A DNA stretch of 64,000 nucleotides from the IMG/VR virus record IMGVR_UViG_3300031884_000002, positions 62,001 through 126,000 of that record. One strand, 5' to 3'. The notes under the pieces are model-generated. The model was not told the origin of the DNA. It saw only the letters and a list, made by a program, of their open reading frames with translations, and searched no databases. Shown piece after piece: positions 6,728-59,483 of the stretch. The stretch is from a virus. Every line of letters starts with the position of its first letter. Position 1 is the stretch's first letter. The translations under genes and the position numbers were made by a program.

Positions 6728-7270
6728 TTCGATTTTTGTAATGTTACGTTTATTTATTTTGACTACCTTAATTAAGAATATTAACGAAGACATCGCCAAT
6801 CCCCCGAAATACTCAAAATATCCTTTATTTATTTTGACAGCGGCAATCGCAGAGCAACTGAATACCGATGGAGTCCCCGAAATACTAAAAATATCCTTTA
6901 TTTATTTTGACTCAATTGAAGAACTTGGTAATCCATAAAGATTTACACCCCGAAATACTCAAAATATCATTTATTTATTTTGACATTCGATATTTAAGGT
7001 CCTCAATATCAAGGTCATACCCGAAATACTCAAAATATCCTTTATTTATTTTGACATGATATGGGAGATTAAAAGTAATCTGGCTCCAGTTCCCGAAATA
7101 CTCAAAATATCCTTTATTTATTTTGACTTTATATTCCAGCCTAATGATTTTAATCGATCAATCCCGAAATACTCAAAATATCCTTTATTTATTTTGACCA
7201 ATTGCTCCATTCATATATTAATAAGGGAGTAGTACCCGAAATACTCAAAATATCCTTTATTTATTTTGAC
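6728..7270 (-). CRISPR. CRISPR array 1: seven 36-bp repeats plus a degenerate terminal repeat
   Basis: Seven repeats of 36 bp start at 6803, 6876, 6949, 7020, 7092, 7163 and 7235. Six unrelated spacers of 35-37 bp separate them. An eighth, degenerate copy (6728-6763) keeps only the last 15-16 bases and is followed by a 39-bp spacer. On the minus strand the repeat starts GTCAAAATAAATAAAGG and ends GAGTATTTCGGG; an internal 8-bp palindrome (TCAAAATA/TATTTTGA) can form a hairpin. Repeats at 6876 and 6949 carry single changes while those from 7020 onward are identical, so the low-coordinate end is the old, leader-distal end. That points to minus-strand transcription, the same strand as the neighbouring Cas12-like gene. 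Spacers mostly have an open reading frame, as expected for protospacers from genes. Confidence 0.92.
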
Positions 7271-7459
7271 AGCCTTCCCGTAAAGGGTTTATTGTCAACT
7301 ATTTAAAAGGCTTTCCACGAGCGGCTATATCAGAAAAGATATAACCTAACTCATGCTAGGCATGTCGGATGCCTAAATATTTGTCAAAGAACAACTTACA
7401 TCTTGCGAGCGGTTATGCGTAACTATCTCATCACCACACCGCTCGCAAGAAAAATTAAA
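7271..7459 (-). ncRNA. Structured RNA between the Cas12-like gene and array 1 (tracrRNA/leader candidate)
   Basis: This intergenic stretch abuts the first repeat and is far more structured than its surroundings. Visible stems: 7402-7412 with 7439-7449 (11 bp, CTTGCGAGCGG), 7357-7363 with 7369-7375 (7 bp), 7323-7331 with 7338-7346 (8 of 9 bp), 7271-7276 with 7307-7312 (6 bp) enclosing a CCC/GGG hairpin. GAGCGG at 7407-7412 has a second near-complementary partner (minus-strand CCGCTC near 7319-7324), so two alternative folds are possible. Position and structure fit a tracrRNA, scoutRNA or omega-RNA-like scaffold, but no long anti-repeat is visible in it. A leader that only drives array transcription is the alternative. 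Confidence 0.7.
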
Positions 7460-7608
7460 TTACCATCCTCTACGTTTATTTTGACTACAAAGTTTTTTAT
7501 AATTCAACTCTTCTTCATTGGTTAATCTCCAATATGTAGCCCCCTCTATTCGTTTTTCTCGATGTTTTTTTTCAACAAAGGAATGAGCGTCTCTAAGAAT
7601 ATTATTTT
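7460..7608 (-). other. Out-of-frame C-terminal extension of the Cas12-like gene (candidate RuvC-III)
   Basis: Directly after the stop at 7609-7611 the -1 frame stays open for about 50 codons and ends at 7460. It lacks an ATG and encodes a basic, helix-rich segment including NNILRDAHSFVEKKHREKR. DAHSF could be the D-A-x-A-type RuvC-III motif that the annotated protein lacks. Either a frameshift split the gene or ribosomes shift near the A-rich stretch at the stop. Its last codons contain GTCAAAATAAA, identical to the start of the array repeat. Confidence 0.5.
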
Positions 7609-8973
7609 TTATTTCTGTTTTATTTCTTCTGTGTCGCATAATGTAAACACCATACCTCGTGATTCAATGTTATTTTTTAAAGTAGATTTAAACTTGAACC
7701 AAGGGAATTCACCGGCTAATTTAAATCCTTTTGTTGTGTTTAGTACAATTTCATTACAACAAGTTCTTTCGGCGTGTTTACATAACATAGCTACAGTTTG
7801 TTTAATAAAAGCATCGGTTCTTTTTTCAAAATTGTTAGCGACAACTGCTGATTTGCTATTAAAACACGAAACATTCCCAGAACGACGTTCACATTTTCTA
7901 TCCTGTGAAAACCTATCAATATATTCTCTTCTTTTTTCTGACAAATGAACTCCATAATCCTCAGATAAAATTGATTGGAGTTCTTTTAATTTATTTTCTG
8001 GAATATGAGGATATAATTCTTTAACTGTATTAGCATCTAATACTTTGGATAATAATATCTTTTCCTCGGCTACCCATCTGTTAATATTATCTGCGTTATA
8101 CACTTGGAACTTTCTACCACCAACCCACATAGCAAGAAAAGTATCAGGGGCAGTAAATAACATCATTGTTCTATTATTTTTTTTGTCTAAAAGAGAACGT
8201 GGTTGTTTTACTACAATTTTAACTTTATAAGCAGCTTTTTGTTTGTTCCCATTATCATCTCGTTGAGTGATAGTATGATGATGAACTCCTCCTACTCGTT
8301 CACGAACAATCGCACAACTTCCCCATTTAGCATTTCCTTCCATTATTGCTTTCAAGTTTCCATGCTCTCTGCCAAAATTATCACCTCCCGCCAATCTTAA
8401 TTGAATTCTATTATTTATTCTTCCGCATCCAATTACAAATTCTATTACATAAGCAATAGACCCACAAGTATTTAACACTTTTATATCACAAGCCACAGAA
8501 GGTATTTCTAATGGTTGTCCTTCTTTATAGAAGGGTTGATTTTCCCGCCCAAGAAACACAAGCAACTTCTTTTTATTAAATAATTTAGTAATTTTATTCT
8601 GAAGAGTCGATGCGATTACTGATGATGGAATTAAAGGAAATAATTTCCGTGCTTCATTATAAATTTTCTTTTGTAGGGCATTATATTTTTCCTTAGATGG
8701 AGAAACATATTTTTCATCCAATCCACTTTTAACTGGTTCGCTCTTAAACAAGGATGATAACGCCCAATTATGAAACAAATCGTTTTGCTTAAATAATTCA
8801 TCTAATCGAGAATCAACTTCTTTCCATTCCATATTAAGAGGTTCTGCAATAGGTAGGGTAATGGAAAATACATTACTTACAGTATCCGCTGTAAACGCAT
8901 ATGGCTTGGGTTCCTGCCATAGCCAACCATCTCGAAGTTCGAGCAACCCTTTTTTATTTACTTCAAATTTCAT
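7609..8973 (-). CDS. Compact Cas12/TnpB-like effector with degenerate RuvC
   Basis: A 454-aa protein. Residues 60-140 resemble the helical region of compact type V effectors (FHNWALSSLF, ARKLFPLIPSSVIASTLQNK, VFLGRENQPFY). Residues 160-260 resemble the oligonucleotide-binding (WED) part (IQLRLAGGDN, AIMEGNAKWGSCAIVRE). RuvC-I may be at TAPDTFLAMWV (Asp277), without the usual glycine. RuvC-II reads EIVLNTTKGF: the catalytic Glu of the IVxED motif is Asn412. It is followed by FPWFKFKSTLKNNIESRG, the conserved helix of TnpB/Cas12, and stops before the zinc ribbon and RuvC-III. It is therefore probably nuclease-dead and could act as an RNA-guided DNA-binding repressor. Its ATG overlaps the phosphoesterase stop (ATGA). 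Array 1 follows downstream. Confidence 0.75.
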   Translation of the reverse strand: MKFEVNKKGLLELRDGWLWQEPKPYAFTADTVSNVFSITLPIAEPLNMEWKEVDSRLDELFKQNDLFHNWALSSLFKSEPVKSGLDEKYVSPSKEKYNALQKKIYNEARKLFPLIPSSVIASTLQNKITKLFNKKKLLVFLGRENQPFYKEGQPLEIPSVACDIKVLNTCGSIAYVIEFVIGCGRINNRIQLRLAGGDNFGREHGNLKAIMEGNAKWGSCAIVRERVGGVHHHTITQRDDNGNKQKAAYKVKIVVKQPRSLLDKKNNRTMMLFTAPDTFLAMWVGGRKFQVYNADNINRWVAEEKILLSKVLDANTVKELYPHIPENKLKELQSILSEDYGVHLSEKRREYIDRFSQDRKCERRSGNVSCFNSKSAVVANNFEKRTDAFIKQTVAMLCKHAERTCCNEIVLNTTKGFKLAGEFPWFKFKSTLKNNIESRGMVFTLCDTEEIKQK

Positions 8974-9860
8974 AACATTAAGGATTTAAGACCTTTATCG
9001 ATTTTATCCAATGGAATATAATCAACCGGACTACTATTAAAATTTACAATTGTTCCATTCGTAATATGATAAACATCAACTTGACTTAAATTTTTATAAG
9101 TTGAAATATATGCAAATCCGTGTTGCCATGCATTGGCACGCCCACCTTTAGTAGCAAATTCCGGAGAAAGATTACATAAACATCCAATCGACCACGACCA
9201 CATAATATCTTTATCTCCCGCTTCATTGATACGATTTCGTTTACTAAAATCTTTATAAGTAATAGCATGACTATCCGCATGAACAACTCTATGATTTTGC
9301 ATCATATATTGAGTTTCACTAAGTCCATTGCCATGCATAACATAGACATCTCCAACTTCATATATTGGACGAATAGAGCCTCCATTCCAAGGAATATAAG
9401 TTATATTAAGTTCTTTCCATATGGAACATTTACGAATACTTATACCATCTCCAAAACTTCGAAGCAAATCATTTTTTCTTAATTCAAATTCGGAACGATA
9501 TTCGTGATTACCTTCGATAAAAATAATTTCAGCATTGGGCACAAACTTACGAATAACACGGAGAAATTCTTTTCCCATATTAAGAGTTTCTTTCCACGCA
9601 GAAAAATGATATTCTCCATCGTCAGTCATAATCAATCCTCCCTTATTTATTTTAGCAGTCCATCCAGAGCACTGTTGATTATCAAACATATCTCCCATAA
9701 TAATAACTCTATCAGCACCATATTTTTTAATAATCTGCATCAATGGAGACAATGCAACTGGATCATGACGGCAATCTGGCAATTTAACCTTTCCATCTAC
9801 TAACAATGCTGCTTGAAGATGTAAATCTGGAATTGTAATTGTTGTCTCTAATTTATTCAT
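8970..9860 (-). CDS. Calcineurin-like metallophosphoesterase
   Basis: A 296-aa protein with the family's metal-binding motifs: IPDLHLQ (DxH), IIMGDMFDN (GDxxD), IEGNHEYR (GNHE) and VMHGNG. Such enzymes hydrolyse phosphodiesters or phosphomonoesters; substrate unknown. It is first in an operon from the promoter at 9870-9898, and its stop overlaps the Cas12-like start by 4 nt, so the two are co-transcribed and probably translationally coupled. Related phosphoesterases are common in large phages, so a role in the CRISPR system is only a possibility. Confidence 0.85.
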   Translation of the reverse strand: MNKLETTITIPDLHLQAALLVDGKVKLPDCRHDPVALSPLMQIIKKYGADRVIIMGDMFDNQQCSGWTAKINKGGLIMTDDGEYHFSAWKETLNMGKEFLRVIRKFVPNAEIIFIEGNHEYRSEFELRKNDLLRSFGDGISIRKCSIWKELNITYIPWNGGSIRPIYEVGDVYVMHGNGLSETQYMMQNHRVVHADSHAITYKDFSKRNRINEAGDKDIMWSWSIGCLCNLSPEFATKGGRANAWQHGFAYISTYKNLSQVDVYHITNGTIVNFNSSPVDYIPLDKIDKGLKSLML

Positions 9861-11627: not shown

Positions 11628-12812
11628 ATGAATGATGCATCAAAATTAAACCAAAGTCAAGAGAAAGAAGTTATATGGGAAGAAAGAAATTATACAGAAC
11701 CAGAGAAGAATTACTTGAACAGCAACGTGCCAGAGCAAAACGATATTACAACAAAAACAAACAAAGAATATCCGCTGTCAGAATGGCCAATTACTATAAA
11801 GCCAATAAAAAGCGGAATATACAAAATAATAAATAAAATTAATAATAAATATTATGTAGGAAGTGCTAAAAATATAAGAAACAGATGGAAAAAGCACTTT
11901 ACTGATCTAAATACAAATCGACATCCCAACTATCATTTGCAGAGCGCATATAATAAATATGGAAAAGATAGTTTTATTTTTACATTTATAGAAGAAGTCG
12001 AATCTAATAAAAAACTGTTATATAAAGTAGAATATAAATATTTAAGAATTGCTAAAAAAGAAAAACCAAATGTATATAATTTAAGGTTTAAACCGGCTGG
12101 AGGACCAACCGATACATATGGGCGATGGAAAATATCAGAATATAACAAAACAAGAGTATTTACGAAAGAAACAAGAGCAAAAATGTCGGCGGCATTAAAA
12201 AGAAGAAAAGTAACAAACGAAACACGACAAAAACTAAGTGATACTAATAAATTATATTATTCTATACCTGAAAACAGACAAAAACTCATAGAAATGAGTA
12301 AAAAAGTAAATCGGCAGAAAATAGGAATTAAAAATAGAGACAAAACTATATATAAATTTATAAATGTAAATACAGGAGAAATATTCGAAGGAATTAGATA
12401 TGATTTTAGAACAAAATATAACTTAAGGAAAAGCAGTGTTAATGGAGTTATTAAAAAACGAAGAAAGACAGTTAGTGGCTGGAGATTATTTGATAATTCA
12501 TATGTTCCAATTGTCGGAAAAAATAACAAATATAAAAATAAAGAAGAATCAAATTTTTCCAAACGCAAAATTAAAAATAGACCTTCAAAAGAGGAACTTC
12601 TCACAATGATATGGAATAAATCCACAATTCAAATAAGTAATGAGTTTTGCGTGAGCAAAGGAGCAATTAGAAAATGGTGTATAGGATACAATATACCACT
12701 TCCTCCTGTTGGTTATTGGATTAAATTAAAATATGGATATAAAGATGAATGTCTTAAAATAAAAGAAGAACAATTTAAAAAATTTAATCTTGTTTGTAAT
12801 TTTGATTTATAA
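11628..12812 (+). CDS. GIY-YIG homing endonuclease
   Basis: A GIY-YIG catalytic domain starts at SGIYKIINK (residue about 62) with NKYYVGSAKNIRNRW and the HLQSAYNKYGKDSF region. NUMOD3-like DNA-binding repeats follow (TRAKMSAALKRR, TRQKLSDTNK, NRQKLIEMSK) and a C-terminal HTH (IQISNEFCVSKGAIRKW). The first 60 residues are probably not native: that stretch is conserved in the MGRKK frame instead. Its 3' end overlaps the end of the convergent RNA ligase gene by 29 bp. Confidence 0.85.
   Translation: MNDASKLNQSQEKEVIWEERNYTEPEKNYLNSNVPEQNDITTKTNKEYPLSEWPITIKPIKSGIYKIINKINNKYYVGSAKNIRNRWKKHFTDLNTNRHPNYHLQSAYNKYGKDSFIFTFIEEVESNKKLLYKVEYKYLRIAKKEKPNVYNLRFKPAGGPTDTYGRWKISEYNKTRVFTKETRAKMSAALKRRKVTNETRQKLSDTNKLYYSIPENRQKLIEMSKKVNRQKIGIKNRDKTIYKFINVNTGEIFEGIRYDFRTKYNLRKSSVNGVIKKRRKTVSGWRLFDNSYVPIVGKNNKYKNKEESNFSKRKIKNRPSKEELLTMIWNKSTIQISNEFCVSKGAIRKWCIGYNIPLPPVGYWIKLKYGYKDECLKIKEEQFKKFNLVCNFDL
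11675..11836 (+). CDS. Basic MGRKK peptide overlapping the GIY-YIG gene in another frame
   Basis: A 53-codon frame starting MGRKKLYRTREELLEQQRAR, with YYNKNK-like basic helices. Compared with the copy at 58580, most differences are silent third-position changes in this frame and replacements in the GIY-YIG frame, so this frame is the one under selection. It ends where GIYKII begins, in the frame one base earlier. A purine-rich stretch (GAGAAAGAAG) precedes its ATG. It may be the true N-terminal DNA-binding part of the endonuclease, joined by a +1 shift. Confidence 0.6.
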   Translation: MGRKKLYRTREELLEQQRARAKRYYNKNKQRISAVRMANYYKANKKRNIQNNK

Positions 12813-58532: not shown

Positions 58533-59483
58533 ATGAATGATACATCAAAATTAAACCAAAGTCAAGAGAAAGAAAAAATATGGGAAGAAAAAAGTTATAT
58601 AGAACCAGAGAAGAATTACTCGAACAGCAACGTGCCAGAGGAAATAGATACTATAATAAACACAAAAGAAAAATCAATATTAAAAATATGCGACGATACT
58701 ATAACAAAAAAAAGTGGAATATACAAAATAATAAATAAAACAAATAACAAATACTATATAGGAAGTGCTAAAAATATTAGAATTAGAATTAAATATGGTC
58801 ATTTATGGGCACTAAAATCTAAAAAACACAGAAACAGACATCTTCAAAGAGCATGGAACAAATTTGGAGAAGATAATTTTTATATAATGATTATAGAATA
58901 TGTTCCTATAGAATTATTAAAAATTGTAGAACAAAGATATTTAGATATAGCAAAATCAGAAATAGATAATGTATATAACATACAGTTTATAGCCGATAGA
59001 TTAGAAGTAACTGATTATATGCGAGAATGTGTTAGAGCATCAAATAAAAACAGAGTATGGACAAAGGAATCTCGTAAAAAATTAAGCAAAGTTCATACTG
59101 GGTATAGACATACAGATGAAGCCAAACAAAAAATGAGCGATGCCAATAGAGGTAAAATTATTTCTTTGGAACATAGATTAGCAGTTGGAATTGCGACAAG
59201 AGAACGGATCAAAAAATATGGATCTCCAATGAAAGGAACTCACATGTCCAAGGAAACAAAACAAAAACTTAGTAAATCAAGAACTGGAAAATATAGAGGG
59301 AAGGAAAATCACGCATTTGATAATACTATTTATAATTTTATCCATAACAAAACTGGCGAAATATTTGTAGGAACTAGACACGAATTAAAATTAAAAGCAA
59401 ATCTTTGTATTGATAGTTTATATAAACTAATAAATAATAAAATATTTACTTCCAAAGGTTGGGCATTAATATATCCTATTTAA
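58533..59483 (+). CDS. GIY-YIG homing endonuclease
   Basis: A 316-aa reading frame with the GIY-YIG domain from SGIYKIINKTNNKYYIGSAK (residue about 60) to about 140, and NUMOD3-like repeats (SRKKLSKVHTGYRHTDEAKQ; KMSDANRGK; TKQKLSKSRTGKYRG). Closest relative in the window is the gene at 11628, including an N-terminal stretch that is better conserved in the MGRKK frame. Overlaps the 3' end of the convergent dCMP deaminase gene by 8 nt. Confidence 0.85.
   Translation: MNDTSKLNQSQEKEKIWEEKSYIEPEKNYSNSNVPEEIDTIINTKEKSILKICDDTITKKSGIYKIINKTNNKYYIGSAKNIRIRIKYGHLWALKSKKHRNRHLQRAWNKFGEDNFYIMIIEYVPIELLKIVEQRYLDIAKSEIDNVYNIQFIADRLEVTDYMRECVRASNKNRVWTKESRKKLSKVHTGYRHTDEAKQKMSDANRGKIISLEHRLAVGIATRERIKKYGSPMKGTHMSKETKQKLSKSRTGKYRGKENHAFDNTIYNFIHNKTGEIFVGTRHELKLKANLCIDSLYKLINNKIFTSKGWALIYPI
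58580..58738 (+). CDS. Basic MGRKK peptide overlapping the second GIY-YIG gene
   Basis: A 52-aa frame (MGRKKLYRTREELLEQQRAR ... RYYNKHKRK ... RRYYNKKKW). The first 20 residues are identical to the copy at 11675 although the DNA differs at silent positions. It ends where GIYKII begins in the +1 frame, after a run of eight A at 58706-58713. Confidence 0.6.
   Translation: MGRKKLYRTREELLEQQRARGNRYYNKHKRKINIKNMRRYYNKKKWNIQNNK

What the first reader, a model, noticed from the sequence alone, without database searches (positions are those of the whole stretch)
7271..7459. Multi-stem RNA with two competing partners for the same arm
Four nested hairpins fill the 189 nt between gene and array. The arm GCGAGCGG pairs perfectly with 7439-7449 and alternatively with a second CCGCTCG near 7318-7324. 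Competing stems suggest a switch, for example control of array transcription, or dual use as scaffold for guide and for autoregulation.
Basis: seen in the sequence. Interest (0 to 1): 0.72.

Follow-up and report, generated by a model that had tools for sequence, protein, structure and literature searches.

The report
Guide-RNA scaffold of phage's nuclease-dead Cas12
The folded RNA between a gene and a CRISPR array in a huge phage is the conserved scaffold (a tracrRNA) that joins each guide to a small Cas12f-like protein predicted to be unable to cut DNA; it is not a two-state switch, and a related phage also carries the same scaffold alone with a single guide, like a natural single-guide RNA.

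Summary
The structured region is real, but it belongs to the other strand and its "competing partner" is misassigned. The RNA is the minus strand (-69.7 kcal/mol, z -6.7, 9 G-U pairs, against -52.6, z -4.9, 1 G-U). It lies between a 454-aa Cas12f-like gene and the array, all on one strand. A homologous cassette in another phage contig (L035; effector 47% identical) has the same order: metallophosphoesterase, effector, ~58-aa protein, RNA, array. Comparing the two gives 12 compensatory base pairs (0/500 shuffles), and an unbiased scan finds exactly three covarying helices (null mean 0.06). One is an anti-repeat pairing with the start of the CRISPR repeat and forms an H-type pseudoknot with a second: a tracrRNA-like guide scaffold. 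Both effectors have Asn for the RuvC-II Glu and no recognisable zinc finger or RuvC-III, so they should bind without cutting. The alternative pairing costs 17.9 kcal/mol (probability about 1e-11) and cannot form in a third copy: no support for a switch. Contigs of L035's phage group carry a solitary copy, scaffold plus one repeat plus one guide, like a natural single-guide RNA. Not tested: transcription, binding, targets. New variant of a known kind (phage dCas14/Cas12m/TldR-like).

The parts
8970..9860 (-). calcineurin-like metallophosphoesterase, first gene of the operon; stop overlaps the effector start (ATGA)
   Evidence: Pfam Metallophos E 7.8e-6; phrog_221 E 6e-17; 34% identical homologue at the same place, with the same overlap, in L035
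9870..9898 (-). sigma-70-like promoter TTGACA-N17-TATACT with extended -10, just upstream of the operon
   Evidence: 11 of 12 matches; the number of promoter-like sites overall is not above chance; TTGACA, 17 nt, TATGGT stands just upstream of the homologous operon in L035
7609..8973 (-). Cas12f-like effector, 454 aa, predicted nuclease-dead (RuvC-II Glu -> Asn; ends before zinc finger and RuvC-III)
   Evidence: PADLOC Cas12u3 E 3.6e-9, Cas12f E 1.6e-8, N-lobe; profile with the L035 homologue hits solved Cas12f 9nzq E 1.2e-4, Cas12f 'ED' aligned to 'ND'; 47% identical to the L035 effector
7460..7639 (-). small basic ORF, 59 aa, overlapping the effector's end; conserved (VEKKxREKR...WRL)
   Evidence: homologue of 57 aa at the same place in L035, 32% identity
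   Evidence: a stem of different sequence at the same place in L035 and in the solitary copies
7382..7398 (-). segment UAAGUUGUUCUUUGACA, 17 nt identical in L035; its 5' part may pair with the repeat's 3' part (P6, weak)
7357..7375 (-). hairpin P2 (7375-7369 with 7363-7357), invariant loop CCGAC; CCGA could pair with UCGG at the guide-proximal end of the repeat (7239-7236)
   Evidence: one compensatory change; loop and repeat end both invariant
   Evidence: inner helix 4 of 5 pairs doubly compensated, outer helix intact
7272..7311 (-). helix P4 (7311-7307 with 7276-7272), first half of the pseudoknot at the RNA-repeat junction
   Evidence: 3 of 5 pairs doubly compensated
7266..7298 (-). helix P5 = anti-repeat: 7298-7293 pairs with 7271-7266, i.e. 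the first five nucleotides of the CRISPR repeat and the base before it; crosses P4 (H-type pseudoknot)
   Evidence: 4 of 6 pairs doubly compensated across RNA and repeat
6803..7270 (-). CRISPR array, 7 full 36-bp repeats GTCAAAATAAATAAAGGATATTTTGAGTATTTCGGG, read on the gene strand, guides follow TTCGGG
   Evidence: repeat 3' end TTCGGG shared with the L035 repeat
6749..6763 (-). degenerate last repeat, leader-distal end
7466..7485 (-). partial repeat copy inside the end of the 59-aa ORF; not seen in L035, meaning unknown

Best explanation
The minus-strand RNA 7459-7271 is the tracrRNA-like guide scaffold of a phage-encoded, nuclease-dead Cas12f-like effector. One operon, from a promoter at about 9.87 kb, makes the metallophosphoesterase, the effector, the small protein, the scaffold and the array transcript. 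The scaffold's anti-repeat (7298-7293) pairs with the first nucleotides of the CRISPR repeat and, with helix P4, forms a pseudoknot; hairpins P1-P3 offer binding sites to the protein; the guide follows ...UUCGGG. For spacer 1 this can occur within one molecule, as in a single-guide RNA; for later spacers, in trans. The loaded effector then binds matching DNA without cutting it and blocks transcription or replication of host or rival-phage genes. Shown by sequence: the homologous locus, the covarying scaffold and anti-repeat, the loss of catalytic residues. Inferred: transcription, complex formation, DNA binding, repression and targets.
For: Homologous cassette in the same order and orientation in L035. 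Scaffold-repeat covariation: 99.1% of cells paired, 12 pairs changed on both sides, 0/500 shuffles, slid controls 0-1; an unbiased search finds exactly three helices with at least 3 double changes, null mean 0.06, none of 2000 shuffles with three. One of these three joins the RNA to the repeat. The covariance model finds the RNA at one place only in the window's own record and not in the relative L034 that lacks the cassette. Cas12f homology. RuvC-II Glu replaced by Asn in both effectors (same alignment against the phage's own TnpB), with no zinc finger or RuvC-III. Solitary scaffold + repeat + one guide suggests the unit is read as a whole.
Against: Only two independent sequences for most helices. 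No transcript data. No target was found for any spacer. The RuvC-I alignment is uncertain and the structure models are too poor to use (mean pLDDT 38.0 and 36.9), so 'dead' rests on the missing RuvC-II Glu and the missing C-terminal part.
Confidence: 0.8

Rival explanations
1. A riboswitch-like or attenuator RNA in which the arm at 7439-7446 alternates between 7405-7412 and 7318-7324 and so controls array transcription or autoregulates the system.
For: The second site exists; an arm with two 7-nt partners is found in only 1.5% of shuffles, and a 7-pair alternative with two wobbles is also possible in L035.
Against: 17.9 kcal/mol (window) and 12.4 kcal/mol (L035) less stable, pair probability below 1e-8; P1 forms first during transcription; the second site is the 3' side of conserved hairpin P3; the solitary copy cannot form it; no matching terminator.
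Confidence: 0.04
2. The dead Cas12f-like protein is a targeting subunit that recruits the operon's metallophosphoesterase (or the small protein) to act on the target, so that interference is by a separate enzyme.
For: The metallophosphoesterase is first in the operon, overlaps the effector start by ATGA in both phages, and keeps DxH, GD, GNH[ED] and H motifs; a 57-59-aa protein is conserved too.
Against: Metallophosphoesterases of this kind are a general phage family (phrog_221); gene order alone does not show a physical link.
Confidence: 0.15
3. The array is read from the + strand and the minus-strand RNA is a tracrRNA whose anti-repeat is the partial repeat copy at 7485-7466, a Cas9-like layout.
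For: That copy forms a -19.6 kcal/mol duplex with the + repeat, beyond the 0.1% background quantile.
Against: No such copy was seen in L035; in both phages the repeat, on the gene strand, ends in TTCGGG and its first bases covary with the RNA on the same strand; the degenerate repeat lies at the far end.
Confidence: 0.05
4. The phage RNA and effector act as decoys that titrate host guide RNAs, as proposed for a phage RuvC-inactivated Cas9.
For: A precedent with a phage-encoded inactivated Cas9 and tracrRNA is cited in PMC11656645.
Against: The phage carries its own 7-spacer array with matching repeats, and the related phage an 11-repeat array plus a dedicated single guide, which a decoy would not need.
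Confidence: 0.05

Closest known systems
Type V-F CRISPR-Cas12f (Cas14/V-U3) with tracrRNA
   Same: Effector N-lobe homology, small size, scaffold RNA by the gene and array on one strand, repeat-spacer guide order, anti-repeat and hairpins
   Different: No RuvC-II Glu, no zinc finger or RuvC-III; operon with metallophosphoesterase and a small protein; RNA matches no Rfam family
Huge-phage 'dCas14' (Al-Shayeb 2020, PMC7162821)
   Same: Phage-encoded Cas14-family effector predicted to lack a catalytic residue, in phages that mostly lack Cas1/Cas2; repression of host genes proposed
   Different: That case lacks one required residue; here Glu is replaced and the C-terminal part is missing; the passages read there mention no tracrRNA and no partner genes
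Cas12m (type V-M)
   Same: Inactive RuvC, acts by binding DNA and blocking transcription (abstracts of PMC10442227, PMC11013384)
   Different: Different subtype; the effector here matched PADLOC's Cas12f and Cas12u3 models only
TldR (TnpB-like nuclease-dead repressors; PMC13418256)
   Same: Phage-borne, RuvC-inactivated RNA-guided DNA binder with one guide on one scaffold, like the solitary copies here
   Different: TldR descends from transposon TnpB and uses a dedicated gRNA; here there is a CRISPR repeat array and an anti-repeat
tracr-L, natural single-guide form of the Cas9 tracrRNA (PMC11417352)
   Same: A scaffold carrying its own guide in one molecule, used for regulation
   Different: Type II; the solitary unit here is a separate locus with a full repeat, and no self-target was found

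Membership tests
tracrRNA of a class 2 CRISPR system | lies by the effector gene and array | tested here: met
   window and L035
tracrRNA of a class 2 CRISPR system | anti-repeat complementary to the CRISPR repeat | tested here: met
   P5: 6 bp, 4 doubly compensated between window and L035
tracrRNA of a class 2 CRISPR system | expressed and bound by the effector with crRNA | not testable with these tools
   needs RNA-seq or pull-down
Type V-F (Cas12f) effector | sequence homology to Cas12f | tested here: met
   PADLOC Cas12f/Cas12u3 E 2e-8 to 6e-12; 9nzq E 1.2e-4; mainly the N-lobe
Type V-F (Cas12f) effector | RuvC catalytic triad D-E-D | tested here: not met
   Glu -> Asn in both; no RuvC-III
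Type V-F (Cas12f) effector | C-terminal zinc finger | tested here: not met
   window protein ends before it, L035 tail has no cysteine pairs; following ORF has no CxxC
Nuclease-dead, binding-only Cas12 (Cas12m-, dCas14-like mode) | inactive RuvC with kept guide machinery | tested here: met
   by sequence only
Nuclease-dead, binding-only Cas12 (Cas12m-, dCas14-like mode) | guided DNA binding and repression | not testable with these tools
   no protospacer found either
Riboswitch/attenuator with two folds | two conserved, mutually exclusive folds of similar stability | tested here: not met
   17.9 kcal/mol apart, not kept in the solitary copy
Any RNA family in Rfam 15 | covariance-model match | tested here: not met
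   no match at gathering score or at E <= 5

The most novel reading that the evidence does not exclude
A phage interference module in which a nuclease-dead Cas12f-like protein, guided by an array or by a built-in single-guide-type RNA, delivers a separate metallophosphoesterase (and a small basic partner) to the target, and in which the phage also keeps a dedicated one-guide copy of the scaffold for a fixed regulatory target.
Probability: 0.15. Interest if true: 0.88.

Novelty: new variant of a known kind. Interest (0 to 1): 0.6.

Why it matters
It turns a guess about a 'switch RNA' into a covariation-supported guide scaffold for a small family of phage-borne Cas12f-like proteins that have lost catalytic residues, with two conserved protein partners of unknown role and a natural single-guide form. 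It gives a directly testable case of how phages may use guided binding rather than cutting, and a very compact natural dCas12 with a defined scaffold. The pseudoknot at the repeat junction also bears on how TnpB-type single guides became two-part CRISPR guides.

Tried and rejected
Rfam (gathering and E <= 5): nothing. Single-protein scans for relatives of the effector in viral contigs, genome contigs, phages and plasmids: nothing until the C-terminal part was used. Relatives by neighbour genes: the metallophosphoesterase gave only distant phages; rIIA gave one relative (L034, 52% identity) whose 139-kb record lacks the effector and has a GIY-YIG-like gene beside rIIA. Alignment-based scans chose weak patterns and found nothing more. 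AlphaFold models of the effector had mean pLDDT 38.0 and 36.9 and were not searched. The anti-repeat search without relatives was inconclusive and at first favoured the partial repeat copy at 7485-7466; the L035 comparison replaced it with 7298-7293. Spacer targets: no convincing match in the window's own record, in the other held phage loci at up to 5 mismatches in 22 nt, or in the phage collection. No second copy of the RNA in the window's own record. Origin from one of the phage's own TnpB genes: only weak similarity. The solitary copies L042/L046/L047 are near-identical to each other and to L035 after P1, so they add little covariation.

Full report
What is there. The window is bases 62001-126000 of a 353,772-base virus record, a huge phage with rIIA and several TnpB-like genes. 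On the minus strand, in order, lie a metallophosphoesterase (8970-9860), a 454-aa protein (7609-8973), a 59-aa ORF (7460-7639), the 189-nt region of the finding, and a CRISPR array of seven 36-bp repeats with a degenerate eighth (6749-7270).

Observation. The region folds better than all 200 shuffles on both strands, but clearly best on the minus strand: -69.7 kcal/mol, z -6.7, 9 G-U pairs, against -52.6, z -4.9, 1 G-U pair. G-U pairs on one strand are A-C mismatches on the other, so the RNA is most likely the minus strand, that of the gene. The 13-bp stem is real. The 'second CCGCTCG' at 7318-7324 is CGAGCGG on the + strand, a direct repeat of the arm it was said to pair with; it competes for the other arm, 7439-7446. 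Forcing that pairing costs 17.9 kcal/mol and its equilibrium probability is about 1e-11. Folding of growing transcripts shows the main stem formed before the third site is made.

The neighbour. The 454-aa protein matches PADLOC Cas12u3 and Cas12f models in its N-lobe and, as a profile with its homologue, the solved Cas12f 9nzq (E 1.2e-4). At the RuvC-II position that Cas12f has Glu (QMED) and both phage proteins have Asn (VLNT, VWND); the phage's own TnpB aligns the same way (IVLE against IVLN). The window protein ends where the zinc finger and RuvC-III should begin, and the L035 protein continues with a different tail that has neither. It is therefore predicted not to cut. The following ORF is not a broken-off remainder: it has no CxxC motif and is itself conserved.

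A homologous system. A scan with the C-terminal part found L035 (IMGVR_UViG_3300032397_000159): metallophosphoesterase (34% identical), effector (47%), a 57-aa protein (32%) and a structured RNA, then 11 repeats CTGACAGTCACTAATCGGTCAGTAAAGGACTTCGGG, all on one strand and with the same ATGA overlap. That array also holds unusually short spacers of 5, 18 and 27 nt. Both repeats, read on the gene strand, end in TTCGGG. The RNAs share the 17-nt segment TAAGTTGTTCTTTGACA, the loop CCGAC and ATAAACC.

Covariation. On a MAFFT alignment not fitted to structure (A8), the structure P2, P3, P4, P5 and weak P6 has 99.1% of cells paired, 12 pairs with changes on both sides and 0 of 500 shuffles as high; sliding partners by 1-3 columns leaves 0 or 1. 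Asking without any given structure for helices of at least 5 bp, paired in both sequences, with at least three double changes, returns exactly three: P3 inner, P4 and P5; shuffled columns give 0.06 on average and never three in 2000. P5 joins 7298-7293 to 7271-7266, the start of the repeat: an anti-repeat. P4 (7311-7307 with 7276-7272) interleaves with it, giving an H-type pseudoknot at the junction. The invariant CCGA of the P2 loop could pair with the invariant UCGG just before the guide; being invariant, this is a suggestion only. Caveat: these are two independent sequences for most helices; the third row is nearly the same as the second. P6 is broken in one cell and has no double change.

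Solitary copies. A pattern scan found the scaffold followed by a single full repeat and one guide-like sequence, with no effector and no array beside it, in L042, L046 and L047, near a portal gene, and at the cut end of L035's own contig, so one phage seems to carry both. Its P1 stem has an unrelated sequence but is again a long stem. It cannot make the alternative pairing. It looks like a natural single-guide RNA; a remnant of a lost array is the other possibility. No target of its guide was found in the pieces at hand. The window's own record has no second copy.

How it most likely works. The operon has a good sigma-70-like promoter just before its first gene, and L035 has TTGACA, 17 nt, TATGGT at the same place; the total number of promoter-like sites is not above chance, so this is supportive only. 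The scaffold and array are then made together; the anti-repeat and pseudoknot present the repeat, and the guide follows UUCGGG. The effector is expected to bind matching DNA and block it, as reported for Cas12m (PMC10442227, PMC11013384) and TldR (PMC13418256) and proposed for a huge-phage 'dCas14' (PMC7162821). Binding, repression and targets are inference.

Known or new. Guided, non-cutting phage effectors are a known kind. This family appears to be a new variant: a Cas12f-like protein without the RuvC-II Glu and the canonical C-terminal part, two conserved operon partners, a covariation-supported pseudoknotted scaffold and a single-guide form. No close relative was found in the phage or plasmid collections or in genome contigs, and the literature search, limited to the held open-access papers, brought up no description of a Cas12 with a metallophosphoesterase.

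Noticed in passing
L042:5900-6160 (+); L047:4660-4930 (+); L046 (minus strand); L043:1-31: Solitary guide-RNA scaffold + one repeat + one guide-like sequence, without effector or array beside it, between a portal gene and a 166-aa gene, downstream of a 76-aa ORF (L042:5619-5849); the guide runs into the antisense of the neighbour's 3' end.
   Followed up: partly
window 8970-9860 and L035:4304-5182: Metallophosphoesterase fixed as first gene of both cassettes, with the usual last motif GHxH reading [AG]DSH; may be a working partner of the dead effector.
   Followed up: partly
window 7460-7639 and L035:6533-6706: Conserved 57-59-aa basic protein overlapping the effector's end; no family match.
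   Followed up: partly
window 7466-7488 and 6745-6766: Two partial repeat copies flank the array and RNA and share GTA...CGTA outside the repeat; not seen in L035.
   Followed up: partly
L035:7338-7566: Array spacers of 5, 18 and 27 nt among normal 35-40 nt ones.
   Followed up: no
record G000: 7434, 16243, 91061 (broken frame), 108771, 117853, 333113: Six TnpB-like genes in one phage; several have an altered zinc-finger region (TSQRDS...GCRFYS), one is decayed.
   Followed up: partly
L034:6738-7952 and window 11628-12812, 58533-59483: GIY-YIG-like genes; in the related phage L034 one lies directly beside rIIA, where the window phage carries the CRISPR cassette.
   Followed up: no
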